In this document: piece by piece, positions 3,503 to 63,659 of the stretch | Layout: each line of letters begins with the position of its first letter | How positions within the stretch are numbered: position 1 is the stretch's first letter | Origin: Chloroflexaceae bacterium | GTDB lineage: Bacteria; Chloroflexota; Chloroflexia; Chloroflexales; Chloroflexaceae | Direction: 5' to 3' | Length of the DNA: 64,000 bases | NCBI GenBank assembly: GCA_025057155.1 | Contig: JANWYD010000001.1 | Coordinates: 271,113 to 335,112, forward strand | Program-made: the position numbers and the translations under genes | Notes under the pieces: model-generated | The model's database searches: none | The model's input: the letters and a program-made list of their open reading frames with translations, nothing else | Told to the model about the DNA's origin: nothing

Positions 3503-4465
3503 GTGGTCACGGAACTGGAAGCTGAAGTTGCGCGCCTGCGGCGCATGCTGGAACGGCGCGACGCGATCATCACCGCGCTCGCCGAGGTGGCGCGATTGTT
3601 GTCGGTTCATCTTGATCCCCGAACGCAGATGTCGCAGATGCTCGCCGTGCTGGGAGAGGCGGTCCAGGTCAGCCGGGCCTATATCTTCGTGGACCTCACG
3701 CCGGATGACGATCACGCCGTGATAAGCCAGGTGGCGGAGTGGGTGGCGCCGGGAATTACGCCGCAGATTGACAATCCCGAGTTGCAGAACCTGCCTTTCA
3801 CCGAGGCGGGCTTTGGGCGCTGGGAGCGCCTGCTGAAGCAGAACGGGGTCGTCTACGGCAGGGTGGCTGATTTTCCGGCTTCCGAGCAGAAGTTGCTGGA
3901 GGTGCAGGACATCCTTGCACTGGTCGCAGCGCCAATTTTCGTTGGGCAGCGCTGGTGGGGATTTGTGGGCTTTGACCACTGCACCGTGGCCCATAGCTGG
4001 GAGGCGGTCGAGGTAGAGGCCTTGCGCAGCGCGGCGGTGATGTTTGGCGCCGCGCTCTACCGCCGCGAGACGGAGGATCGCATGCTGGCGGCCCAGCGCG
4101 AGGCCCTGCGCGAATTGTCCACGCCACTCATACCAATCACCGATGACGTGGTGATTATGCCGCTGATCGGAGTGATTGACAGCAGCCGGGCGCACATGGT
4201 GATGGAGACCCTCCTCGATGGGGTGACGCGGCAGCAGGCCCGTCTGGTTATCCTGGACATCACCGGCGTTCCGGTGGTGGACAGTCAGGTGGCGCAGGCG
4301 TTGATCCAGGCGGCGCAGGCGGTGAAGCTGCTGGGCGCGCGGGTGATGCTCACCGGCATCCAGCCTCAGATCGCCCAGACGCTGGTGCATCTCGGCGTGG
4401 ATCTGAGCGGCATCCAGACCCAGAGCAGTTTGCAGGCGGGCATCGCAGTGGCGTTGCAGGGGTAG
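3503..4465 (+). CDS. GAF-STAS regulator, RsbR-like anti-anti-sigma/stressosome component
   Basis: The start chosen is GTG 3503, with GGGAG about 10 nt upstream. The open frame reaches back to 3416 but the extra residues look non-coding. The product is 320 residues. It has a short N-terminal coiled coil (about 1-25), a GAF-type sensor domain (about 30-195), and a C-terminal STAS domain (about 205-320) with LSTPLIPI and LDITGVPVVDSQVA. The latter are the conserved RsbR/RsbS strands that carry phosphorylatable Ser/Thr residues. Such proteins pass a signal detected by the N-terminal domain to a switch kinase and then to a PP2C phosphatase or sigma pathway. No RsbT/RsbU homologue is visible nearby, so the partners are unknown. 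Confidence 0.8.
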   Translation: MVTELEAEVARLRRMLERRDAIITALAEVARLLSVHLDPRTQMSQMLAVLGEAVQVSRAYIFVDLTPDDDHAVISQVAEWVAPGITPQIDNPELQNLPFTEAGFGRWERLLKQNGVVYGRVADFPASEQKLLEVQDILALVAAPIFVGQRWWGFVGFDHCTVAHSWEAVEVEALRSAAVMFGAALYRRETEDRMLAAQREALRELSTPLIPITDDVVIMPLIGVIDSSRAHMVMETLLDGVTRQQARLVILDITGVPVVDSQVAQALIQAAQAVKLLGARVMLTGIQPQIAQTLVHLGVDLSGIQTQSSLQAGIAVALQG

Positions 4466-4551
4466 AACTGCCCGGGCGGAGTGGCGCAGCGCCCCCGGTT
4501 CTGCGGGCGCAGTCTGAAGGGTTGCGCTTGCGGTCGCTGCATGGGGCGGCG

Positions 4552-5604
4552 TTACCACAGACGTCCCTGGATCGTCTCATCGGGGTCGGGAGGGGGCTGG
4601 CGCTCGACGTAGGGTGTGCCGAGGTGGGCGTAGGCCCGGCGCGTGGCGATGCGCCCGCGGGGGGTGCGTTGCAGGAAGCCCAGTTGCAGCAGGAACGGCT
4701 CGTAGACATCCTCGATGGCGTCCACTTCTTCCGCCAGGGCCGCCGCGAGGGTAGCAACCCCTACCGGGCCGCCGTTGAACAGGTCAATGATTGCCCGCAG
4801 CAGGCGGCGGTCGTTCTCATCGAGGCCAAGCTCATCCACTTCGAGCTGGCTCAGGGCGGCGCGGGCCACGGGCAGATCAATCGTCCCTTCGGCCACGACC
4901 TGGGCATAGTCGCGCACGCGCCGCAGCAGGCGGTTGGCGATCCGTGGCGTGCCACGGGCGCGCCGCCCCAGTTCGTAGGCGGCCTCGGGGCTGATCGCCA
5001 CTCCAAGGATGCGCGCCGAGCGCATCACGATGTCGCGCATGGCTTCGTCGGAGTAGAACTCCAGGCGGTGCGGGGCCACAAAGCGGTCGCGGAGGGGCGA
5101 GGTGAGCAGGGCCAGGCGGGTCGTCGCGCCGATGACGGTGAAGCGGGGCAGTTTCAAGCGCAGATTGCGCGCGCCGGGGCCCTTGCCGACGATGAGGTCG
5201 AGGGCAAAATCCTCCATTGCCGGGTAGAGCACTTCTTCCACAGCGCGGTTGAGGCGATGGACTTCATCAATAAATAGGATGTCGTTCTTCTGGAGGTTGG
5301 TAAGAATGGCGGCCAGATCGCCAGCGCGTTCGATGGCCGGGCCGCTGGTGACCTTGATGGCCACGCCCATCTCGTTGGCGATCACATTGGCCAGCGAGGT
5401 CTTCCCCAGGCCGGGGGGGCCGTAGAAGAGCGTATGGTCGAGAGGTTCGGCGCGGGCCTTTGCCGCAGCGATGGCAATACGCAGTTGGTCCACCACCTTC
5501 TCCTGGCCGATGAATTCAGCCAGGGTGCGCGGGCGCAGGCTCTTCTCGGCCTGAGGGTCGTCACCCGCGCGTTTGGGGCTGAGCAGGCGCTCGGTCTCGT
5601 CCAT
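4552..5604 (-). CDS. ruvB: Holliday junction branch-migration helicase RuvB
   Basis: The 350-residue length is normal for RuvB. It has the N-terminal [12 protein letters not shown] motif, Walker A GPPGLGKT (62-69), Walker [10 protein letters not shown], the sensor region GATTR and the C-terminal winged helix that grips DNA (about residues 260-340, with [10 protein letters not shown]). RuvB hexamers pump DNA through the RuvA-bound four-way junction during recombinational repair. ruvA and ruvC are not adjacent. GAGGA lies 6 nt before ATG 5604, and an extended -10 promoter lies just upstream. Confidence 0.97.
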
Positions 5605-5633
5605 GTATTCCTCGCACAGACGTTTCGCCGTGC

Positions 5634-5642
5634 ATTATAACA
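5634..5642 (-). promoter_or_regulatory. Extended -10 promoter for ruvB
   Basis: On the minus strand the sequence reads TGTTATAAT, a perfect extended -10 element. It would place the transcript start about 20 nt before the ruvB start codon. No good -35 hexamer is seen at 16-18 bp, which is tolerated when the TGn extension is present. Confidence 0.6.
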
Positions 5643-5696
5643 CGGCAAGAGCGGGGCGGCCCGTCTCGCCGTGCTCGACCGGGGCTTGAGGGAACC

Positions 5697-5769
5697 AAAA
5701 AATCCGGCAGGCGCGGCGCCTACAGTGAGCGACGGGGTCGCCGTCTCACGATGCCGCACCTGCCGGGTT
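5697..5769 (-). terminator. Intrinsic terminator after the CBS-domain gene
   Basis: On the minus strand, 33 nt after the stop codon of the CBS gene, the arms AACCCGGCAGG and CCTGCCGGATT pair. Further internal pairing (GTGAG / CTCAC and GCGAC / GTCGC) makes a long rod. The stem is followed immediately by TTTTTT (5702-5697). This is the clearest Rho-independent terminator of a convergent or tandem end in the window. Confidence 0.75.
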
Positions 5770-5801
5770 GTATTTTCCCGTAGCGATCCCCTCCTGTGGC
5801 G

Positions 5802-6206
5802 TCAGCGTTGCTCAACCGTTCGTCCTGCTGAAACGATCTCGGCGAGGGCGCGGAACATATCGCTCTCGGTGATAATGCCGACAATCAGCCCCTCATCATC
5901 AACCACTGGCAGACTGCCGATGCTATGATTGGCCATGAGCAACGCCGCTTCCTCGATCGGCGTATCTGGCTTTACCCGGAAAACATCACGCGACATCACC
6001 TCAGAGACCTCCATCCCCGCGTGGAGGTAACGTGAGGCTGCCAGCAGGAGATCACGCTCGGCGAGGATGCCTACCAGCCGGCCATTCGCATCGGTGACGG
6101 GAAGATGGCGGAGTCGGTGGTACTGCATGATGCCGAGCGCAGACAAGGCGCTCGACTCTGGTTCAATGGTTACCGGGTGGGCACTCATCCGATCGCGGAC
6201 CAGCAT
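5802..6206 (-). CDS. CBS-domain pair protein
   Basis: The 134-residue protein consists of two CBS motifs (about 8-60 and 72-126) and little else. Each has the pattern of a hydrophobic strand, then a G(I/L)L-type turn, then an (E/D)xDL helix start: GRLVGILAERDLL and GLIVGIITESDMF. CBS pairs bind adenine nucleotides and act as energy or ligand sensors, often for partner enzymes or channels. No partner domain is fused here. A strong AAAGGAG lies 7 nt before ATG 6206. Confidence 0.9.
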   Translation of the reverse strand: MLVRDRMSAHPVTIEPESSALSALGIMQYHRLRHLPVTDANGRLVGILAERDLLLAASRYLHAGMEVSEVMSRDVFRVKPDTPIEEAALLMANHSIGSLPVVDDEGLIVGIITESDMFRALAEIVSAGRTVEQR

Positions 6207-6551
6207 GGTCTCGCTCCTTTCTGGCGGAGCACACCGCCCGGCACAAAGGCGGCAATGCGTCCTGCCCTGCCTGTATCTCGCTCATCCATTTCTGTGCTCT
6301 TTTTCCATCCTACAGCCCGCCGGAGGTTTCAGGGAGAAGAAACGTTAAGCCTCTGTGGATATCTCTTACCGTTTGACTGCCCCGCGCGGCGCACCATCGT
6401 GGGGGCGATGCTGCCTGGTTGTCGGGAAGGAGGTAAGATCCTCACAAAGAACGATAGCCGCTGCGGGGGGGTGGAGTATGATTGACTCGCTTGCGTTCCG
6501 AGATCCCACACCTCACCCCTGTGAGGTCCGGGTTGCCCGTGGAGGTGTCGA
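6207..6551. other. Gene-free stretch between divergent genes
   Basis: This is the divergent intergenic region between the CBS gene and the efflux adaptor gene. Short open frames here have no recognisable family and no ribosome site. A single near-DnaA-box word (TGTGGATAT, 6354-6362) is the only motif noticed. Promoters for both flanking genes must lie here, but none is convincing by eye. Confidence 0.4.
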
Positions 6552-8036
6552 ATGATGCAGCCCGTCATTCGGTTGGGAGGCCTGGCAGGCATCGCGCTGT
6601 TGTTGTTGGGCGGATGTGCTGTGCCAGGGTCGTTCGCGCCGACCCCCACCCCCGTGCCCGAGGTTGAGAACGTGGCGCCGCGAGTGGTGGCCGATGGGCG
6701 GATCGTGCCGATACGTAGCGCTGAACTGCGCTTTCTGACCGCTGGCGTGGTCGAGGCGATCCTGGTAGAGGAAGGCCAGAGGGTGGCCGCTGGCGCGCCA
6801 CTGGCGCGGCTCGACGGCGCGGAGCTTGCCGTAGCGGTGGAACAGGCGCGCGCGGCGCTCGATGAGGCCCGTGCCCAGTACGACCTGCTGCGGGAGCCGG
6901 CTGACCCGGAGGCGGTTGCCGCCGCCGAGGCGCAGCTTGCCCAGGCCGAGGCCCTTGCCCGGCAGGCGCGCGGGCGGGTGACGTCCGCCGATATACGGGC
7001 TGCGCGCGACGAGCTGGCACAGGCGCGCGCCCTGCTGGCGCGGCTGCTCGCCGGGGCGCGGAGCACCGAGGCCGAGCAGGCCCGCGCTGCTCTGGCGCAG
7101 GCGGAGGCCAACCTGGAGGCTCAGCGGGCCACCCTGTCGGCAGCCAAACTCGCCGCCGAGACGCGCCTGAGCCAAGCCGCCAATGCCCTGCGTGACGCCC
7201 AGGACGCCTATTCGCGCATCTACTGGGAGAACGTTGAGCTGGAAAAACTGCGGAGTGAGTTGCCCCAGGCGCGCCGCGACGCCGAGGCCGCGGCGCGCCG
7301 CGCCGTCGAGAACGGGCAGGCCGCGCTGGCGCAGGCGCAGGTGGATCTGGAGCGCGCCCGTGAGGCCGAGCGCAGCGGCATCGCCGCCGCCGAGGCCCAG
7401 GTGCGCGAGGCCGCCGCGCGCCTGGAGCAGGTGCTGGCGGGAGCGGATGCCGACCAGATCGCGGCCGCCCGCGCCCGTGTCAGCGCTGCTGAGGCGGCCC
7501 TGGCGCGCCTCACTGGTGAGGCGCGCGCTGGCGAAGTGGCAGCGGCCGAAGCTGCTGTGGCCCAGGCCCGTGCGGCTCTGGAACAACTCACTACCCCGCC
7601 GCGCACGCCTGAACTGGCCGCCGCCGAGGCCCGCGTCCGCGCCGCTCAGGCCGCGCTACGCCAGGCCGAATTGACCCTCGAACGCGCGACCCTCGCCGCG
7701 CCCTTCGCCGGCACGGTGGTGCAGATCAACTTGAAAGTCGGCGAACAACCCTCGCCGAACGAGCCAGCCGTCGTTCTGGCCGATTTCAGCGCCTGGCGCG
7801 TTGAGACCAGCGATCTGACGGAGCTTGATGTGGTGAATGTGCGGGTCGGCGATCGGGTGACGCTTACGTTCGACGCTCTGCCCGATCTCACCCTGTCCGG
7901 TACGGTAACGAAGATGCAGGCCCTGGGCAAGACCTACCAGGGCGACGTGATCTACACCGTCACCGTTGAGCCGCAGCAGTGGGACGAGCGCCTGCGCTGG
8001 AACATGACCGCCACGGTGACCATTGAGGGTGAGTGA
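6552..8036 (+). CDS. Efflux adaptor lipoprotein, HlyD/MacA (membrane fusion) family
   Basis: The 494-residue product starts at ATG 6552 with GGAGGTG 4-6 nt upstream. A hydrophobic signal ends in a lipobox, LLLGGC, so the mature protein is probably lipid-anchored at Cys22. A biotinyl-lipoyl-like half (about 55-95, VEAILVEEGQRVAAGAPLARLDG) is followed by a very long Ala/Glu/Arg coiled coil (about 95-375). The second lipoyl half comes next (about 375-415, AAPFAGTVVQINLKVGE), then a beta-barrel region. The coiled coil, more than 250 residues, is longer than in MacA. It precedes a MacB-like permease and its ATPase on the same strand, so the three probably form one export machine. Confidence 0.9.
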   Translation: MMQPVIRLGGLAGIALLLLGGCAVPGSFAPTPTPVPEVENVAPRVVADGRIVPIRSAELRFLTAGVVEAILVEEGQRVAAGAPLARLDGAELAVAVEQARAALDEARAQYDLLREPADPEAVAAAEAQLAQAEALARQARGRVTSADIRAARDELAQARALLARLLAGARSTEAEQARAALAQAEANLEAQRATLSAAKLAAETRLSQAANALRDAQDAYSRIYWENVELEKLRSELPQARRDAEAAARRAVENGQAALAQAQVDLERAREAERSGIAAAEAQVREAAARLEQVLAGADADQIAAARARVSAAEAALARLTGEARAGEVAAAEAAVAQARAALEQLTTPPRTPELAAAEARVRAAQAALRQAELTLERATLAAPFAGTVVQINLKVGEQPSPNEPAVVLADFSAWRVETSDLTELDVVNVRVGDRVTLTFDALPDLTLSGTVTKMQALGKTYQGDVIYTVTVEPQQWDERLRWNMTATVTIEGE

Positions 8037-8082
8037 TCGGCCGCCGGGCGCGCCCGGTTGCCAGCGATCGGCGGAGCCGCTT

Positions 8083-10326
8083 ATGCTCAGCTTCAAGAAC
8101 CTCCTGCGCCGGAAGGTGCGTACCGCCCTGACCATCCTGGGAGTCGCCGTGGGCGTCGCGGCCGTGGTGGTGCTCTCGGCCTTTGGGGAGGGCATGGCCA
8201 GTGGGTTTGGCGCCGTGGGCGGCGGCGCCGACGCCGACCTGCTGGTGAGCCAGAAGGACGCGGTGATGATCATCGTCGGCGCGATTGACGAAGAGGTGGG
8301 CGCAGAGATCGCCGCCATGCGCGGCGTGGCCGAGGTCAGTGGCGCAGTGGTGGGCATCCTGCAACTGCCCGAGTCGCCATACTTCCTGGTGACCGGCGAG
8401 GACCCGCGCGGCTTCGGGATGCGCCGCTATCAGATCATCGCCGGGCGGCCCATCAGCGCGAAGCGCGAGGTGATGCTGGGCCGCAAGAGCGCCGAGAGCC
8501 TGAACAAGCGCGTTGGCGACAAATTCCGCATTAACGACATCAGCTACCATGTGGTTGGCATTTACGAGACGGGGTCGAGCTTCGAGGATAATGGGGCAGT
8601 GATCCACCTGGCCGATGCGCAGCGGGCATTCGACAAGCGTCGCCAGGTGAGCTACTTCAAGCTCAAGTTGCGCGATCCACGCGACCGGGAGGAGGTGCGG
8701 CGGGCGATTGAGAGCCGCTGGCCCACGCTGGCGGTCACCGCTTCGGGTGAGGCGACCGCCCAGGACGAACTGTTGGATATTTACCGCGCCATGGGCTGGG
8801 TGGTCGGGCTGTTCGCGATACTGGTCGGCGGCCTGGGGATGATGAATGCCCAGCTTATGAGCGTGTTTGAGCGCACCCGCGAGATCGGGGTGCTGCGGGC
8901 CATGGGCTGGCGGCGGCGGCGGGTTATGCAGCTCATTCTTGGCGAGGCGTTGCTGCTGGCCCTGGTGGGCGGGGGGTTGGGATTGCTGCTGAGCATCGCG
9001 ACGATTGGCCTGCTATCGCGTTCGGCGGCCCTGGGCGGGTTCCTCAGCGGCACAGTGGAACCGATTGGCTACATCCAGGCCCTGGTGATCGCTGGCGTGC
9101 TCGGCCTGGTTGGCGGTGGCTACCCGGCGTGGCGGGCCGCGCGTCTGGCGCCGGTGGAGGCGATGCGCGCCGAGAGCGGCGCCCCGGTGCGCTGGGGGCC
9201 GGTCGCCCGTATGCTCGCCCCGGTGATGCGCGGCCCGGCCCTGCGGAACCTGCTGCGGCGCCCCACGCGCAGCTTGATGACCATGATTGGCCTGGGTGTC
9301 GGCGTGGGGTTGATCGTGGCTCTCGCCGGCATCAGCGAGGGCTCGCGGCGGGCGATCACCCAGTTGCTGGCAGCCGGGCAGGCCGATCTCCTCGCCGAGC
9401 AGGCCGGGGCCTCTGATGTGATGTTCTCGGCGATTGACGAGCGGGTTGCCGAGCAACTGCGCGCCCATCCCGAGGTCAAGAGCGTCTCGCGGCTGATCTT
9501 CGGCACCAGCGCCGTGCCCGGGTTGCCGTTCTTTCTGGTCTACGGCGTTGATCCGCGCGAGAACTATCTGGCCCACTACCGGGTCAGCGAAGGCCGGACC
9601 ATTCAACGTCCCGGCGAGATGATCCTCGGGCGCATGGCGGCCAATAGCCTGGAGAAGGGCGTTGGCGACCAGCTGCGCGTTTCGGGGCAATCGTTTACCA
9701 TCGTTGGCATCTTCGAGACCGGTCTGGCCTACGAAGACACCGGCGCAGTGGTGCCGCTGAGGGACGCGCAGCGGCTCTTCGGCAAGCCCCGGCAGGTGTC
9801 TTTCCTGGGGATCACCCTGCACCATCCCGAGCGGGCCGCCGAGATCGCCAGGACGCTCGAAGAGCGATACCCGCAACTTATGGTGGCCCGCACTGCCGAC
9901 CTGACGCAACGGATGCAGGACTTTGCTACGATGGACGCCGTCTTCGGCGCCCTGATGGCGCTAATGATGCTGGTGGGCGGGATCGTGATCATGAACGTGA
10001 TGCTGATGAGCGTGTACGAACGCACCCAGGAGATCGGGGTGCTGCGCGCGGTTGGCTGGCGCGCGGGGCGGGTGCTGCGCATGATCCTGGCCGAGTCCTT
10101 TGCCCTCAGCCTGTTCAGCGCTGGAGCGGGGGTGCTGATCGGCATTGGCATCAATCAACTGGTGCGCCTGACGCCCGGTTTTGGCGAGTTGCTCAATGCC
10201 GCCTATGCTCCGGCCGATGTCGCGCGGGTCCTGGCGATGGCGTTGGGATTGGGGCTGGTGGGCGGCTCGCTGCCGGCGCTGCGGGCGGTGCGGCTGCGGC
10301 CGGTTGAGGCGTTGCATTATGAGTAG
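8083..10326 (+). CDS. ABC transporter permease with two tandem MacB/FtsX-like halves
   Basis: The start chosen is ATG 8083 (MLSFKNLLRRK), 46 nt after the adaptor stop, with GGAG 8-9 nt upstream. The frame back to 8023 would overlap the adaptor. The 747-residue protein is an internal duplication. Each half has one N-terminal span, a large extracytoplasmic MacB-PCD-like domain and three C-terminal spans of the FtsX type. Matching segments are FEDNGAVIHLADAQRAF in the first half and YEDTGAVVPLRDAQRLF in the second. Each half also has a RTREIGVLRAMGWR / RTQEIGVLRAVGWR coupling helix for the ATPase. A fused dimer could replace the usual permease homodimer. Substrate unknown. Confidence 0.92.
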   Translation: MLSFKNLLRRKVRTALTILGVAVGVAAVVVLSAFGEGMASGFGAVGGGADADLLVSQKDAVMIIVGAIDEEVGAEIAAMRGVAEVSGAVVGILQLPESPYFLVTGEDPRGFGMRRYQIIAGRPISAKREVMLGRKSAESLNKRVGDKFRINDISYHVVGIYETGSSFEDNGAVIHLADAQRAFDKRRQVSYFKLKLRDPRDREEVRRAIESRWPTLAVTASGEATAQDELLDIYRAMGWVVGLFAILVGGLGMMNAQLMSVFERTREIGVLRAMGWRRRRVMQLILGEALLLALVGGGLGLLLSIATIGLLSRSAALGGFLSGTVEPIGYIQALVIAGVLGLVGGGYPAWRAARLAPVEAMRAESGAPVRWGPVARMLAPVMRGPALRNLLRRPTRSLMTMIGLGVGVGLIVALAGISEGSRRAITQLLAAGQADLLAEQAGASDVMFSAIDERVAEQLRAHPEVKSVSRLIFGTSAVPGLPFFLVYGVDPRENYLAHYRVSEGRTIQRPGEMILGRMAANSLEKGVGDQLRVSGQSFTIVGIFETGLAYEDTGAVVPLRDAQRLFGKPRQVSFLGITLHHPERAAEIARTLEERYPQLMVARTADLTQRMQDFATMDAVFGALMALMMLVGGIVIMNVMLMSVYERTQEIGVLRAVGWRAGRVLRMILAESFALSLFSAGAGVLIGIGINQLVRLTPGFGELLNAAYAPADVARVLAMALGLGLVGGSLPALRAVRLRPVEALHYE

Positions 10327-10403
10327 TCGATGCGCCTTCTGCGCCCGTGGCTGGGGAAACCCGTTGATCTCCCCACTCTTCATATCAGAAGCAGGTGCGT
10401 GCT

Positions 10404-11258
10404 ATGGCTGAGCCAGTCATCGCGGCGGAAGCGCCGCAGTCCGAGACCAGCGAGGTTATCCTGGAGACCCGGGCGCTGACCCGTGTGTACGGAGAAAAGG
10501 TGCCGGTCAAGGCTCTCGACGGGGTGGATCTGCAGATACGGCGCGGCGAGGTGCTGGCGATTGTCGGTCCCTCTGGCTCGGGCAAGTCCACCCTGCTGAA
10601 CCTGATCGGGGCGCTCGACCGGCCCACCTCGGGCGAGGTGATTGTCAACGGGACGCCGCTGTCAAAGGTGCGTAACCTCGACCGCTTTCGCAGCCGCACC
10701 ATCGGCTTTATTTTCCAGAGCCACAACCTCTTGCCAACCCTGACGGCGCGGGAGAATGTCGAGGTGCCGATGTACGAACTGCCGCTGCGGCCGGGGCAGC
10801 GCCGCGCCCGCGCCACGGAGTTGCTGGGCCTGGTGGGTCTGGCCGGGCGCCGGGACCATCTGCCGAACCAGCTTTCGGGGGGCGAGCGCCAGCGGGTGGC
10901 GATCGCCCGCGCTCTGGCCAATGCGCCCTCGATTGTGCTCGCCGATGAGCCAACGGGCAACCTCGACAGCAAGAATACTGCCGACATCGTGGCCCTGCTG
11001 ACGCGCCTCAACCGTGAGCAGGGCGTAACGCTGGTGATTGTGACTCACAACACCGAGGTGGCCGCTGCCGCCCAGCGGGTGATCACCTTCCGCGACGGCA
11101 GAATCCTGCGCGATGTCTCAATGAGCAACGAGCTTGAGCGCGAGTTGCTGGAGTTGAAACGCTCGCCCCTGGGGCAGGCCATTCTCCGTGGCGATCATCT
11201 GCCCCCGGCGCTGGCCGAAGTGGCCCCCGTGCTGCACGATCTGCTGGAACGAGTGTAA
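10404..11258 (+). CDS. ABC transporter ATP-binding protein, MacB/LolD type
   Basis: The start is ATG 10404, 77 nt after the permease stop, with GCAGGTG 5 nt upstream. The 284-residue protein has Walker A GPSGSGKST, Q-loop FQSHNLLP, signature LSGGERQR, Walker B IVLADEPT and the switch histidine in THNTE. The LNLIGALDRPTSGEV segment is typical of the LolD/MacB/FtsE branch. A C-terminal extension of about 50 residues beyond the core is extra compared with LolD. It should energise the duplicated permease encoded upstream, together with the adaptor lipoprotein. Confidence 0.95.
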   Translation: MAEPVIAAEAPQSETSEVILETRALTRVYGEKVPVKALDGVDLQIRRGEVLAIVGPSGSGKSTLLNLIGALDRPTSGEVIVNGTPLSKVRNLDRFRSRTIGFIFQSHNLLPTLTARENVEVPMYELPLRPGQRRARATELLGLVGLAGRRDHLPNQLSGGERQRVAIARALANAPSIVLADEPTGNLDSKNTADIVALLTRLNREQGVTLVIVTHNTEVAAAAQRVITFRDGRILRDVSMSNELERELLELKRSPLGQAILRGDHLPPALAEVAPVLHDLLERV

Positions 11259-11314
11259 TGCGATTTTGGATTTTGAATTTTGAATTTTGGATTGGTGGGG
11301 GTCTAACGGTGATA
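11259..11314. repeat. TTTTGGATTTTGAATTTTG intergenic repeat
   Basis: Just after the ABC ATPase stop (11264-11293) is an AT-rich run of alternating GATTTTGG and GAATTTTG words. A shorter copy, CGATTTTGGATTG, sits after the phosphoribulokinase-like gene at 41674-41687. Both follow a stop codon, so this may be a dispersed 3'-flanking repeat. No function is inferred. Confidence 0.35.
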
Positions 11315-11457
11315 ATTAGTCTGTGAACGAAGTTTCCTTGCATTTTCGCCCCCCTCCCAACCTCCCCCTAACGGGGGGAGGCGCCGGACTCCCTCCCCCA
11401 GCAGGGGAGGGTTGGGAAGGGTGCAGAGGCGCCGAAAAACTTCGTTCACAGACTAAT
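11315..11457. repeat. MITE-like element with 21-bp perfect terminal inverted repeats
   Basis: The 21-bp ends at 11315-11335 and 11437-11457 are exact reverse complements and contain GTCTGTGAACGAAG. The 143-bp interior is Pyr/Pur-skewed (CCCCCTCCCAACC, then GGGGAGG words) and holds no gene. Related ends occur at 45808-46064 and a decayed right end at about 3220. The size, termini and multiple copies fit a non-autonomous transposable element. No transposase is visible in the window. Confidence 0.65.
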
Positions 11458-11494
11458 AATTACCTATGCATCAGTTCAACAGGAACGGGTGTAA

Positions 11495-11519
11495 AGCGCA
11501 CGACCCGGAAGGTTGCGCT
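11495..11519. repeat. REP-like palindrome (GCGCA...TGCGC family)
   Basis: The sequence AGCGCACGACCCGGAAGGTTGCGCT can fold on itself with a short CGGAA loop and one bulge. It belongs to the family of GCGCAACC / GGTTGCGC palindromes also seen at 25654, 34592, 41944, 44756 and 60804. It lies in the gene-free stretch between the ABC operon and the CobW gene. Confidence 0.45.
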
Positions 11520-11584
11520 GCGGCCTCAGCAGCCACTCCGGTCTACGGACTTGCTACACTAAATGTAGTCAGCGCACCGATCAC

Positions 11585-11616
11585 TTATCCACATTTTGTG
11601 GATGGAGTGTGGATAA
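11585..11616. promoter_or_regulatory. Cluster of DnaA boxes (two perfect, inverted, plus one degenerate)
   Basis: TTATCCACA at 11585-11593 is a perfect consensus DnaA box. TGTGGATAA at 11608-11616 is the same box on the other strand. TGTGGATGG at 11597-11605 is a two-mismatch copy. Three boxes in 32 bp is far from chance in GC-rich DNA. The function could be an origin, a DnaA-titration or reactivation site, or DnaA-regulated transcription. No dnaA, dnaN or parAB gene is nearby, and the flanking genes run towards the site from both sides, unlike the usual origin layout. Confidence 0.6.
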
Positions 11617-11625
11617 CACCTCAAT

Positions 11626-11668
11626 ATATAGGAGCCTCCTGGAATTATATCGCAGGAGGCCCCTATAT
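11626..11668. other. Strong 16-bp stem hairpin beside the DnaA boxes
   Basis: ATATAGGAGCCTCCTG (11626-11641) and CAGGAGGCCCCTATAT (11653-11668) pair over 16 bp with one mismatch around an 11-nt AT-rich loop. No T-run follows on either strand, so it is not a standard terminator. Its position 10 bp from the DnaA boxes suggests a structural part of the same site. Confidence 0.5.
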
Positions 11669-11868
11669 CTAGCAACACCAAACAGGCCGGGAACGCGGCC
11701 TGACGCTATGCTCATTTTGACACAGCAGGGTGATCCGGTGGTAAAGCGGAAGTAAAGGCTGCGCTAACCGCCGGGGTCAGTCTGATTATATGCGGGGGGG
11801 CATTACCGTTTCGTTGCCAGTTGTCGAGCATTGCAGCTTGACAGTTGCTCGCTGTCACCATTCTGTAT

Positions 11869-46064: not shown

Positions 46065-46234
46065 TACTACGCCCGCCCAGAATAAAATCGGATAAACCGG
46101 TTATCCGAATGGATCCACGTTGTGCACTGGCAAGCCCTGTTCCCCGACTGGCAAGGAACGAGGGTGTTTCTGAGAGGACGCAACCTTCCCAGACACTCCC
46201 ATTCGTGAGGGGCAACCCGGTTTCCCCCATGCCC

Positions 46235-48741: not shown

Positions 48742-48882
48742 TGTGGAGGTGTGGAGGTGAAATTTCAGAGGTTTCGCCCTCCCCGACCCTCCCGTTCACC
48801 TGCTCCACACCTCCACACCTCCACACCTCCACACCTCCACACCTCCACACCTCCACACCTCCACACCTCCACACCTCCACAC
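48742..48882. repeat. 8-bp tandem array CTCCACAC x10 with an inverted partner
   Basis: Ten exact CTCCACAC units occupy 48803-48882, followed by two decayed ones (TTCTACAC, CCCTACAG). An inverted short copy, TGTGGAGGTGTGGAGGTG, lies at 48742-48759. It sits between the mtnA promoter and the 3' end of truB. Such an array is prone to slippage and should vary in length between strains. Confidence 0.85.
48803..48882. repeat. Exact ten-copy core of the 8-bp array
   Basis: Ten consecutive identical CTCCACAC units, the only perfect tandem microsatellite-like array of this size in the window. It is useful as a strain-typing locus and marks where the dispersed 8-bp family has expanded. Confidence 0.9.
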
Positions 48883-48962
48883 TTCTACACCCCTACAGAC
48901 CGGTTACGTGGAGCTGTACAGGGGGCGGCCATGAAGCCGGAACGCCGATTGTGAACCATGCC

Positions 48963-49838
48963 TCAGGGGAAGAACACCTTCTCCGGGCGCCAGTGGTCGC
49001 CGCTGCGGCGCAGAACGGCCAGCAGCGCGCCGTCGGGCCCGTGGGCGCGCGCCCATTCTCCGTCGAGGGCCGGCAGGTCCACAGGTAGGCCATTTGCCAC
49101 GCGACGGGCCTGCCCGGCGTCGAGGGTGACGGCGGGCCAGCCGGCGACAGCGGTTTCGGGGGGGAGCAGGGCCGCGACAAGGTTTGCCGGATCGGCGCTG
49201 AGGATGTCGAGGGCGAGGGCCGTATCGAGGTGGAACGGGCCAACGAAGGTGCGCCGGAGCGCCGCCAGGTGTGCGCCGCAGCCCAGGGCCGCTCCAATGT
49301 CGCGCGCCAGGCTGCGGATGTAGGCCCCCTTGCCGCACTCCACCACGATACGCAGCGTGTCGGGACCGGCGCGCTCCCAGTCGAAGCGATAGATGACCAC
49401 GGGACGTGGCGGCAACTCGGGGGCCGCGCCGGCGCGCGCCAGGTCGTAGAGCCGGCGACCCTGGTAGTGCAGGGCGGCGTAGGCTGGCGGTATCTGGAGG
49501 ATGTCGCCTCGCAGCGACGCAATGGCCGCCTCGATCGCCGCGTCATCGAGGGGGGGCACAGGGCGGGTCGCCAGGACCTCGCCCGCGGCGTCGTCGGTTG
49601 TCGTGGTCACCCCCAGGCGTACCAGACCCACGTAGCCCTTGCGCGCGTCGGTCAGGTACTCGATCAGGCGTGTGGCGTGGCCCAGTGCTACGGGCAACAC
49701 CCCGGTCGCCATGGGGTCGAGCGTGCCGGCGTGCCCGACGCGGGCAGAGTGGCCCGCGATGCGCCGGACGCGCGCCACGACGTCGTGGGAGGTCAGGCCG
49801 GCGGGTTTGTTAATGTTGAGAAAGCCGTGGAGGGTCAT
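48963..49838 (-). CDS. truB: tRNA pseudouridine(55) synthase TruB
   Basis: The 291-residue protein has GFLNINKPAGLTSHDVV, the catalytic Asp motif VGHAGTLDPMATGVLP, RKGYVGLVRLGVTTTTDDAAG, PPAYAALHYQGRRLY and GAYIRSLARDIG, all TruB marks. It isomerises U55 in the T-arm of tRNAs. In most bacteria truB follows rbfA and nrnA; here it is cut off from nrnA by about 2.2 kb of plus-strand accessory DNA. The start has only a weak AGG upstream, as expected if it was once translated as part of the operon. Confidence 0.97.
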   Translation of the reverse strand: MTLHGFLNINKPAGLTSHDVVARVRRIAGHSARVGHAGTLDPMATGVLPVALGHATRLIEYLTDARKGYVGLVRLGVTTTTDDAAGEVLATRPVPPLDDAAIEAAIASLRGDILQIPPAYAALHYQGRRLYDLARAGAAPELPPRPVVIYRFDWERAGPDTLRIVVECGKGAYIRSLARDIGAALGCGAHLAALRRTFVGPFHLDTALALDILSADPANLVAALLPPETAVAGWPAVTLDAGQARRVANGLPVDLPALDGEWARAHGPDGALLAVLRRSGDHWRPEKVFFP

Positions 49839-50095
49839 AGCCTGGAACGCGCCCGAGCAGGGAGGGTATAGCCTGATTTTGCCATTGATCCATGTGGGGC
49901 AAACCGGCTTTTCCTATGCTAACGAGGCCCTTATGGATTTTACCATCAAAATATAGTGCTTTGAAAACCGTCATGTCTCTTGCCTGGAAGTCTTCTGATC
50001 CGCTAGAATCAGCACATATTTCCTCTGCGGTCCTCTACCGGCTACCGCCGTGGCTGTTCGGCGCGGCAGCAATCTTCACACCAGGACCAAGCGCG

Positions 50096-50590
50096 ATGAG
50101 CGACGATCTGCTCGCCCGTCTACAGGCCCTCCTGCCCGAAGAGCGGGCCAGTCTGCTGGCCCGGCTCGACGACGGCGCGCCGGGGCTGCCCGGCCAGGGC
50201 GCTTCCGCCCCGAACGGCCGGGTCACCGGCGAAGTTGCCGGGCGCCCCGATGGTGCGCTGGATGAGCTCCTCGCCCGCCTTACGGCTCTCCCCGCCCACG
50301 AGCGGGCCAGCCTGCGCTCCCGGCTCGCCAACGACGCCTCCGGGCCGCCTGGTGAACCCGCTGCCGATCCCGATGCTCGAAGCGTTACCATCGCCACGGG
50401 TGATATTGTCGGGCGCGATGTCAAAAAGATCCAGGTCTCGGCGCCGCCCGGCGACGCCGCCGGCCCGGACGCGCAGACCGGCGGCGTCGCCATTGGCGAC
50501 GTGGCCGGGCGCGATGTGAAGAGGATCGAGGTCAAGGCGCCAGTGCGGGGCCCGGTCATACTCGAACCCAAAGGGCCGGTTCATGTTTAA
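50096..50590 (+). CDS. Small protein with repeated helical and GD(I/V)-(V/A)GRDVK motifs, unknown function
   Basis: The start chosen is ATG 50096, with AGGA about 11 nt upstream. The frame reaches back to 49892 but the extra residues are not convincing. The 164-residue product has two similar helical segments (LLARLQALLPEERASLLARL and LLARLTALPAHERASLRSRL). Two copies of a short strand motif follow (TGDIVGRDVKKIQV and IGDVAGRDVKRIEV). Such GDxxGRD strands occur in linker regions of Chloroflexota and cyanobacterial conflict-type (STAND, TIR, caspase) proteins; that link is from memory of family appearance, not a search. Its stop codon (TAA 50588) is followed in the same frame by more open sequence, so it may be the 5' part of the broken gene that follows. 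Confidence 0.5.
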   Translation: MSDDLLARLQALLPEERASLLARLDDGAPGLPGQGASAPNGRVTGEVAGRPDGALDELLARLTALPAHERASLRSRLANDASGPPGEPAADPDARSVTIATGDIVGRDVKKIQVSAPPGDAAGPDAQTGGVAIGDVAGRDVKRIEVKAPVRGPVILEPKGPVHV

Positions 50591-50626
50591 ACCTTCGACG
50601 ACCATCGCCAGCGGGTCGCGGCCTAC

Positions 50627-52040
50627 GTGGCGCTTCTGAGACAGCTCGCCGCCGGCGCCCTGCCTCCGGCCTCGCTGCTCTTCCCGTCGCCTGTGGATGA
50701 GGCGCGCTTCAGGCGCGCGCGACTGCCGATGGCTCAGTCGCTGCTCCAGTACTGGCTCCCGGCGCCGCCGGAGGAAGAGGCGTATGCCGAGGCGCTGCGG
50801 CGGACAGCGGTCGCCTGCCTGCTGCTCCCGCTGGTTACCCTGCTGGACAACCGGCTGCCATTCGACCCGCGCCAAGGGCTGGTCGTGCCGCCGTTGCCCG
50901 GGCTATCGGACCTGATAGCGGCGACGCGCCGCATCTGCGCCACGGCGCCGTTCGCTATGGGAGAGGAGCAGACGCAACGCAGGATGCAGGCGATCAAAGC
51001 GCTGGAGAAGGCGCTGGCCGACCCGCGCTACGGCGAGGAATGCTGCCGGCTCCTCGCCGATCTGGCCGAAACCCCGGCTGGCAAGCACACCCTTGCAGAG
51101 GCGCTGATCGCCTACGAGCGCCGGCGCCCGAATCAGCCGCTTCCGCCAGCCATCCACGTGATCGCCGCGGGCGCGCCTGGCGGCGCGGCGGGCAGCGGCC
51201 TGGCGCTGCTGGTCTACGATTATCTGCGCCGGGGCGTGGAGAGCGAATCGGCCCCTCCCGGCGCAGCATCCGAGCGCCCCCGCCCGGCGGCCTTTGATCG
51301 CGCCATGATCCCCTGCGATCCCGGGGCGTGGAGGGCCGAACTGCGCCGGCGCAACGAACACTTCGGAGCGCCGCAGGGCTATTCTGCTACCTGCCCAGCG
51401 GGACCTACCGCATTGGCGGGTGGGAGCAGGGGCAGCCAGCGACGAGGTTCAGGCTCATCGCCTTCTGGATCGCCTGCGCGCCCATCACCAATGCCCAGTA
51501 CCGGGCCTCTGTCGAGGCCGGCGGCTACCGCCAGCGCCGGTGGTGGACGCCGAATGGCTGGAAGTGGAAGCAAGAATGGAAGCGCGAGCAACCCTCGTAG
51601 TCGGACTACTCCCGGTACAATGCCCCCGACCAGCCGGCGCTTGTGAACTGGTACGAGGCAAGCGCTTTCTGCGCCTGGCTCACGGCGCAGTCCACGATGC
51701 GCTGCCGGCGGGCCATGCGCTGCGCCTGCCCACTGCGGCCGAGTGGGAGGTCGCCGCGGCCTGGGACGGAGGGGGTGGGTACCGTGTCTACCCCTGGGGC
51801 GACGCCCCGCCAACCCCGGAGCGGGCCATCTTCGGGGACAGCAGGCGGGAGCGCCCGACGCCGGTGGGCGGTTGCCCGGCGGGCGCGGCGGCCTGCGGGG
51901 CGCTGGATATGGCCGGTAACGTCCGGAGGGCCGCCGGGCGGGGGGCCGGCCGCGCCCGTCGCATCCGCCGCCGCCCGGAACGGCGCATCCGCCCCGGCGG
52001 GGCTGGCGGGGCGTTGCCCGGGATGTTGCGTCTCTTCTAG
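50627..52040 (+). pseudogene. Broken gene ending in an FGE-sulfatase (formylglycine-generating-enzyme-like) domain
   Basis: An open frame from 50627 encodes a helical region (PRYGEECCRLLADLAE, then RRPNQPLPPAIHVI). It then loses a base near 51381, after which the next frame reads CYLPSGTYRIGGWEQ, FWIACAPITNAQYRA and WTPNGWKWKQEWKREQPS. A TAG at 51598-51600 replaces an expected Tyr codon, and the same frame resumes with RYNAPDQPALVNWYEASAFCAWL. A second base is missing near 51690; the third frame continues LRLPTAAEWEVAAAWDGGGG and YPWGDAPPTPERAIF up to ALDMAGNV. The expected WEWTAS...GG(S/G)W end is destroyed. At least four lesions make this a clear pseudogene. It overlaps the nrnA 3' end by 4 bp. 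Confidence 0.88.
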
Positions 52041-53026
52041 CCCAGACTCGCCCGCAGCAAGGGCAGCACGGTGGCCCGGGCCTCCTCCAGGCCCATGTGG
52101 AGCGTGGCCCCGGCGGCCTGGGCGTGGCCCCCACCTCCCAGGCGCTGGGCGATCGCCGAGACATCAATGTCGGGCGTGGAGCGCAGGCTGAGTTTGACTG
52201 TGGCGGCGTCGCGCTCCTTGAACAGGGCGCAGACCCGCACGCCGTCAATGCGCTGCATACGCATAATCGTATCATCAGTCGCCTCGTCGCCAGCCCCGGT
52301 GGCGGCCAGGTGTGCCAGGGTCACACTGGCCCAGGCCAGCGGCCCTTCGCGGCGCATGTCGCTGAGGACCAGGGCGGTCAGGCGCATGGTGCTCTCAGGG
52401 ATGCTGAAGTAGACCGCGGTGATCACCGCGCGCAGGTCGGCGCCGCTGGCGAGGATGTCGGCGGCGGTACGCAGGGTCTGCGGCGAGGTGCTGCTGGTCT
52501 GAAAGCTCTGGGTGTCGGTGGTGAGGCCGAGGTAGAGGCAGGTGGCGGCTTCGGGGCCGACCGGCAGCGCCATAGCCCGCAGGAGGCGGAAGAGCAGATC
52601 GGCGGTGGAGGCCGCCCGCGGGTCAATCAGGTTCAGCGAGCCGCCGCCATTGTTGGTCACATGGTGGTCAGTGATCAGCAGCGGCCGTGTAAGCAACTCG
52701 GCCAGGTAGGCGTCGGCAATCGGGCCGACGCGCTGCGGAGCGGCGGTGTCGAGCATCCAGGTTAGATCGGCGGCGGGCAGCGCATCGCCGGGACGGAAGA
52801 CCTGGAGCCACTCGACGCCGGGGAGGCGCAGGCAGTAGGAGGGCGCAGGCGAGGAGAGCAGGCAGAACGGTTCCTTGCCGATGGCGCGCAGGGCGTGAGC
52901 TGCGCCGAGCATGGACCCGACCGCGTCGCCGTCGGGGTTGACGTGGGTCAGCAGCAGGATGCGCCGGGCCGGGGCGATCTGCGCCTGGAACAGCGGCGCG
53001 GCAACTTCAGGGTCGGTGTAGATCAT
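52037..53026 (-). CDS. nrnA: Bifunctional oligoribonuclease / PAP phosphatase NrnA (DHH family)
   Basis: The 329-residue protein has THVNPDGDAVGSMLG, the DHH motif ITDHHVTNNG, and the C-terminal DHHA1 glycine motif GGGGHAQAAGATL. It degrades nano-RNAs and may dephosphorylate 3'-phosphoadenosine 5'-phosphate. This is the usual neighbour of rbfA and truB in Gram-positive and Chloroflexota operons. Its 3' end now abuts the accessory insertion instead of truB. Confidence 0.93.
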   Translation of the reverse strand: MIYTDPEVAAPLFQAQIAPARRILLLTHVNPDGDAVGSMLGAAHALRAIGKEPFCLLSSPAPSYCLRLPGVEWLQVFRPGDALPAADLTWMLDTAAPQRVGPIADAYLAELLTRPLLITDHHVTNNGGGSLNLIDPRAASTADLLFRLLRAMALPVGPEAATCLYLGLTTDTQSFQTSSTSPQTLRTAADILASGADLRAVITAVYFSIPESTMRLTALVLSDMRREGPLAWASVTLAHLAATGAGDEATDDTIMRMQRIDGVRVCALFKERDAATVKLSLRSTPDIDVSAIAQRLGGGGHAQAAGATLHMGLEEARATVLPLLRASLG

Positions 53027-63421: not shown

Positions 63422-63659
63422 TTCAGGATGCCGGGGAAAGCGGGTTTCGCCACGTCCCCGCCCGGCGTATGTCCAGGCGCCGGGGAGGCCGAAAAGCCAG
63501 GGCCAGAACGTCCCACGTCCCTGACAGACAGGACGGGAGTTGCGGGTCGCAATCCTGTGGTTGCGCCTGGCAGCAACTAGCCTTCTGGTGCGTCTGCCGG
63601 CAGTCGAACGGCCTTCCGGCATCTTTCCAGTATCCCATACCAACACGCGGGGACAGGCT

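What the first reader, a model, noticed from the sequence alone, without database searches (positions are those of the whole stretch)
49839..52040. Accessory plus-strand island interrupting the nusA-infB-rbfA-nrnA-truB operon
Every other gene from 48.9 to 58.3 kb is minus strand and in the expected order, but about 2.2 kb between nrnA and truB is plus-strand accessory DNA with a decayed gene. Insertion into a translation operon is unusual because it separates truB from its promoter and converges transcription on nrnA.
Basis: partly seen in the sequence, partly recalled or inferred. Interest (0 to 1): 0.6.

Follow-up and report, generated by a model that had tools for sequence, protein, structure and literature searches.

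The report
Dead immune-sensor gene inside translation operon
The extra DNA between two housekeeping genes is the broken remnant of one bacterial immune-sensor-type gene that is present, in different states of decay, in sister species but absent from this spot in most other relatives; it is a clear case of gene decay rather than a new system.

Summary
Between nrnA (52037-53026, minus) and truB (48963-49838, minus) lies a 2.2 kb plus-strand segment carrying one broken gene. It encodes an FGE-sulfatase (C-type-lectin-fold) protein with GDxxGRDV linker motifs, disabled by an in-frame TAA, a TAG, two frameshifts and loss of the C-terminal part of the FGE domain. In 61 genomes of the order, nrnA and truB share a contig in 50, always on one strand, and 47 of those 50 have 308 bp or less between them. 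The three exceptions (413, 742, 2201 bp) are all in this genus; the 413 and 742 bp copies are relics of the same gene with different deletions. No intact copy was found at this site. An intact 613-aa homologue in Candidatus Chloroploca mongolica has a C-terminal region matched by a template repeat (12 of 16 differences at template adenines), so the family is a target of diversity-generating retroelements. Such FGE/NACHT sensors are already described. The segment is a genus-level insertion of a known kind of conflict-system sensor, now decaying. truB and nrnA remain under purifying selection (dN/dS 0.08-0.19). The promoter-separation and transcription claims are untested. Interest is low to modest.

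The parts
49839..50095 (.). AT-richer leader between truB and the broken gene; divergent promoter-like sites (49980-50009 plus; 49979-49950 and 49965-49937 minus); its part up to 49998 is shared at about 90% with G003; dispersed repeat copy at 49894-49914
50096..50587 (+). N-terminal part of the broken gene: an internally repeated segment (50102-50207 / 50261-50366, 71% identical) and two GDxxGRDVK linker motifs (50399, 50495); ends at in-frame TAA 50588-50590
50591..51375 (+). Middle region, about 240 aa, no Pfam family, 39% identical to the intact 613-aa homologue of G022; same frame as the N-terminal part; ends at a frameshift near 51340-51390
51376..51923 (+). FGE-sulfatase (C-type-lectin fold) domain remnant in two frames with TAG at 51598-51600 and a frameshift near 51687; truncated after ...CGALDMAGNV, so the region where related proteins carry the retroelement's variable repeat is gone
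51924..52036 (.). GC-rich repeat-like filler replacing the gene's C-terminal end up to the nrnA stop codon; 87% copies only at the same locus in G003
52037..53026 (-). nrnA (DHH/DHHA1 phosphoesterase), intact
48963..49838 (-). truB, intact

Best explanation
The segment is the pseudogene of a single accessory gene of about 620 codons (N-terminal part with GDxxGRDV linkers, a middle part without known family, C-terminal FGE/C-type-lectin domain). It belongs to a family whose intact members are targets of diversity-generating retroelements (DGRs) and act, by published proposal, as antigen sensors of NACHT/STAND conflict systems. It entered between nrnA and truB in the ancestor of at least three species of this genus. 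It then lost its use and is being removed by independent internal deletions, which stop at the two flanking genes because those remain under selection. It encodes no working product. truB is presumably expressed from its own promoter or by read-through. Shown: gene identity, lesions, relatives, distribution, and the DGR signature of the intact homologue. Inferred: single insertion, ancestral function, present transcription.
For: FGE hits in two frames with stops. Intact homologue in G022, 613 aa, tblastn E 2.6e-66 over the N-terminal linker, middle and FGE parts. nrnA-truB gap 308 bp or less in 47 of 50 same-contig genomes; 413, 742 and 2201 bp only in G002, G003 and G000, one genus. G003 lacks about 49999-50610 and 50696-51695; G002 lacks about 49887-51727 but keeps FGE sequence up to the nrnA stop codon, with its own TAG. 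DGR signature in the intact homologue: 7 related C-terminal copies in its genome, one (L186) an A-rich template; 12 of 16 differences fall on template adenines, with an RT gene about 1.9 kb from it. The island FGE falls in one clade with those DGR targets, support 98/97. dN/dS of truB 0.17-0.19 and of nrnA 0.08-0.17.
Against: The window copy has lost the variable-region end, so its own DGR-target status rests on homology only. The G002 relic aligns to the start of the variable-region end of two related genes (scores 64 and 62) but not to the template itself (18; shuffles mean 20, largest 34). N-terminal similarity to the intact homologue is weak and gapped. Most relatives are metagenome assemblies, so single frameshifts could be errors, though not the large deletions. 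No mobile element or target duplication explains how it entered.
Confidence: 0.86

Rival explanations
1. The gene order with an FGE gene between nrnA and truB is ancestral and most relatives lost it.
For: All five members of the genus have DNA other than truB after nrnA.
Against: 47 of the 50 same-contig genomes, across four families, have 308 bp or less there; losing it cleanly in every other lineage would need many parallel events.
Confidence: 0.05
2. The pieces are still translated as short proteins, or joined by programmed frameshifting or read-through, so the locus is functional.
For: The N-terminal and middle parts are long open frames and a plus-strand promoter-like site lies upstream.
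Against: Two stops, two frameshifts and loss of the FGE C-terminal part; sister species G002 and G003 have deleted most of the gene, each differently.
Confidence: 0.06
3. Two separate insertions at the same place: the island-type gene in G000/G002/G003 and a different NACHT-FGE gene in G004, making the nrnA 3' end a preferred site for such genes in this genus. This concerns how the site was used and is compatible with the pseudogene reading.
For: G004 carries a NACHT-FGE gene plus a small gene directly after nrnA. Its NACHT part has at best 39% identity in the other four genus members, and its FGE groups with a G014 gene, not the island (90/89).
Against: The island branch is poorly resolved inside the clade; an ancestral tandem pair with differential loss fits equally; the G004 contig ends before truB.
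Confidence: 0.4

Closest known systems
DGR-diversified FGE/C-lectin antigen-sensor genes of multicellular bacteria (Dore et al. 2024, PMC10907252; abstract and passages seen)
   Same: C-terminal FGE domain; the intact homologue's end is matched by an adenine-rich template; sister genes carry NACHT; the paper names filamentous chloroflexi among hosts and cites Chloroploca genomes
   Different: The window copy lacks the variable region and NACHT and is broken; its closest intact homologue has FGE without a NACHT hit
FGS-domain effectors of NTP-dependent conflict systems (Kaur et al. 2020, PMC7159879; passages seen)
   Same: FGE/FGS C-type-lectin domain behind variable N-terminal parts; link to DGRs and multicellular habit
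   Different: No vWA, MoxR or VMAP partner was found in the segment
Pseudogenes of accessory genes in bacterial operons (general knowledge, recalled)
   Same: Nonsense mutations, frameshifts and nested deletions that stop at selected neighbours
   Different: Nothing categorical

Membership tests
FGE-sulfatase domain (PF03781) | Match above the curated cut-off of 23.3 bits | tested here: met
   43.5 and 34.4 bits for two pieces; 55.6 and 41.8 bits in the genome scan
FGE-sulfatase domain (PF03781) | Complete domain | tested here: not met
   Profile positions 8-109 and 110-186 of 255 only, in two frames
DGR variable protein | C-terminal variable region matching a template repeat, with differences at template adenines | tested here: not met
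   Region absent in the window copy; met in the intact homologue of G022 (12 of 16 differences at adenines)
DGR variable protein | DGR reverse transcriptase and template in the same genome | tested here: met
   Own genome contig C3: RT, template and a NACHT-FGE target, 14 of 18 differences at template adenines; not shown to act on this gene
NACHT/STAND-FGE sensor | NACHT or other STAND NTPase domain between N-terminus and FGE | tested here: not met
   No NACHT in the window pieces or in the 613-aa homologue; NACHT present in the paralogues at C8, C20 and the G004 site
Transposon or genomic island | Integrase/transposase gene or flanking duplication | tested here: not met
   No such gene among the ORFs tested in 49839-52040; no direct repeat linking the two edges among the 20 of 30 families shown

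The most novel reading that the evidence does not exclude
In this genus the 3' end of nrnA, inside the nusA-infB operon, is a recurrent landing place for retroelement-diversified immune-sensor genes (two different FGE genes in four species), which has repeatedly uncoupled truB from the operon.
Probability: 0.2. Interest if true: 0.45.

Novelty: new member of a known kind. Interest (0 to 1): 0.24.

Why it matters
It gives a three-species series of one accessory conflict-type gene being eroded between two selected genes. It also ties an FGE protein without NACHT to the DGR-diversified sensors of filamentous Chloroflexota, and shows that this translation operon tolerates being split. It does not open a new question by itself.

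Tried and rejected
Ancestral layout: rejected on the gap table. Chance ORFs: rejected. Mobile element: no transposase or integrase seen, no edge repeats among those shown. Target-site duplication: the empty sites of other genera are too diverged and the edges too eroded to call (that script handled only loci with nrnA on the plus strand correctly, because loci matching on the minus strand kept contig orientation, so only those rows were read). Template match of the G002 relic to the G022 template: not above shuffles. A template for the G004-site gene in G004: none found, the query hit only itself. PADLOC: no model for the two island pieces given or the 613-aa homologue. Literature: the library was searched for DGR with FGE and NACHT, Chloroflexi with DGR and conflict systems, DGR with Chloroploca, DGR pseudogenes, and the operon gene names. 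In those listings I saw no paper on an FGE gene between nrnA and truB; only PMC10907252 and PMC7159879 were opened (abstract and passages; passages only).

Rows dropped: alignments of 60 bp or less and loci L080-L083 were not printed; domains under about 150 aa, hits above 1e-8 and identical rows were left out; stop codons and gapped codons were skipped. The gap table uses match edges, so gaps are good to a few bases; truB of G006, G009, G013 and G020 was pieced from two matches, and truB of G027 is only a 40-residue match at a contig end. The nine genomes with the genes on different contigs and the two without a truB match cannot speak for or against contiguity unless flanks are read; I read flanks for G001 and G004 only (G015 was fetched and aligned but not studied further).

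Full report
What is there. The window lies in contig C1 of a 5.1 Mb genome. By its relatives (Chloroflexaceae and Chloroflexales metagenome assemblies, Candidatus Chloroploca, Oscillochloris) it is a Chloroflexota of the Chloroflexales type. On the minus strand run nusA, infB, rbfA, an RsmC-like methyltransferase gene, nrnA and truB. Between the nrnA stop (52037) and the truB start (49838) are 2198 bases. They hold one plus-strand gene in pieces: an N-terminal part from an ATG at 50096 with an internal repeat and two GDxxGRDVK motifs, a middle part of about 240 aa in the same frame, and an FGE-sulfatase domain in the two other frames.

It is broken. Against the intact 613-aa homologue of Candidatus Chloroploca mongolica (G022, L098:475-2316; name by matching contig length) the copy shows an in-frame TAA at 50588-50590, a frameshift near 51340-51390, TAG at 51598-51600, a frameshift near 51687, and no homologous sequence after 51923. 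The FGE profile is covered only for positions 8-186 of 255. A GC-rich block fills 51924-52036.

It is specific to the genus. I searched 61 genomes of the order, the window's own included, with NrnA and TruB. NrnA matched in 61 of 61 and TruB in 59 of 61. In 50 genomes both lie on one contig, always on the same strand. The distance is 308 bp or less in 47 of those 50, and 413, 742 and 2201 bp in G002, G003 and the window's genome, all of one genus. In the other 9 of 59 they lie on different contigs. For two of these, the remaining genus members, I read the flanks. G004 has a different, also broken, NACHT-FGE gene and a small gene after nrnA, with truB on another contig beside mtnA. G001 has what by eye are a lipoprotein gene and transporter genes after nrnA (no family search done).

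It is decaying separately in each species. G003 keeps the leader up to 49998 at about 90% identity but lacks about 49999-50610 and 50696-51695. G002 lacks about 49887-51727 but keeps FGE sequence running right up to the nrnA stop codon, with its own TAG where the homologue has Trp. Deletions thus stop at the neighbours. Those neighbours are conserved: pairwise dN/dS of G000 against G003, G002 and G004 is 0.18, 0.19 and 0.17 for truB, and 0.08, 0.17 and 0.17 for nrnA.

What the gene was. The last 166 bases of the intact homologue have seven related copies elsewhere in its genome at 81-86% identity. One of them, L186, is adenine-rich: 87 of the 116 mismatches between it and the other seven rows lie on its adenines, and 12 of 16 in the direct comparison with the homologue. 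It lies about 1.9 kb from a reverse transcriptase gene that follows a NACHT-FGE gene. That is the signature of a diversity-generating retroelement with the homologue as a remote target. The window's own genome has another such cassette on C3: a NACHT-FGE target, RT and template, with 14 of 18 differences at template adenines. Near it is a caspase-domain protein carrying the same GDxxGRD linker as the island. In a tree of 31 FGE domains the island falls in one clade with the retroelement targets, support 98/97. Dore et al. 2024 (PMC10907252; abstract and passages) propose that such proteins are antigen sensors of conflict systems and name filamentous chloroflexi among the hosts. Kaur et al. 2020 (PMC7159879; passages) describe the FGE/FGS domain behind variable N-terminal parts in such proteins.

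Results against this reading. The window copy has no variable region, so it cannot itself be tested as a retroelement target. The G002 relic resembles the variable-region end of two related genes (alignment scores 64 and 62) but does not match the template above shuffles. No template was found for the G004 gene. The own genome's C8 paralogue was not searched for a template. The island's position inside its clade is unresolved. PADLOC has no model for it.

Insertion and decay are supported. Loss of the truB promoter is not shown: promoter-like sites exist on both strands in 49937-50009 (3 found in the scanned 3.6 kb, 0.2 expected), but only transcript data can decide. Convergent transcription onto nrnA needs an active plus-strand promoter, which is also unknown.

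Verdict. This is an ordinary evolutionary remnant of an interesting but known kind of gene, in an unusual place. Its novelty lies in the place and in the well-resolved decay series.

Noticed in passing
L094 (own genome C3:283000-295000), 3957-11793 minus: A diversity-generating retroelement cassette: NACHT-FGE target, RT, template repeat, and near it a caspase-domain protein sharing the GDxxGRD linker.
   Followed up: partly
L071 (G004 C132), 4515-8290 minus: A different NACHT-FGE gene with one in-frame stop and one frameshift directly after nrnA in a sister species, whose truB lies on another contig beside mtnA.
   Followed up: partly
window 48803-48897: Tandem 8-base repeat (CTCCACAC) between mtnA and truB.
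   Followed up: no
window 49894-49914, 46207-46230, 63433-63453: Dispersed GTGGGGnAAnCC-type repeat, 4 matches against 0.16 expected in the window; one copy sits at the truB edge of the island.
   Followed up: no
window 51924-52036; L069 1686-2002: GC-rich repeat block beside nrnA, present in more than one partial copy at the same locus in G003, together with a near-palindrome (GAGACGGCCCGGCGGGCCGTCTC).
   Followed up: partly
L188 (G022 C133): Chloroploca mongolica retroelement locus with two FGE target genes (at least one with NACHT), RT and template; four further related C-terminal copies on other contigs of that genome besides the homologue used here.
   Followed up: partly
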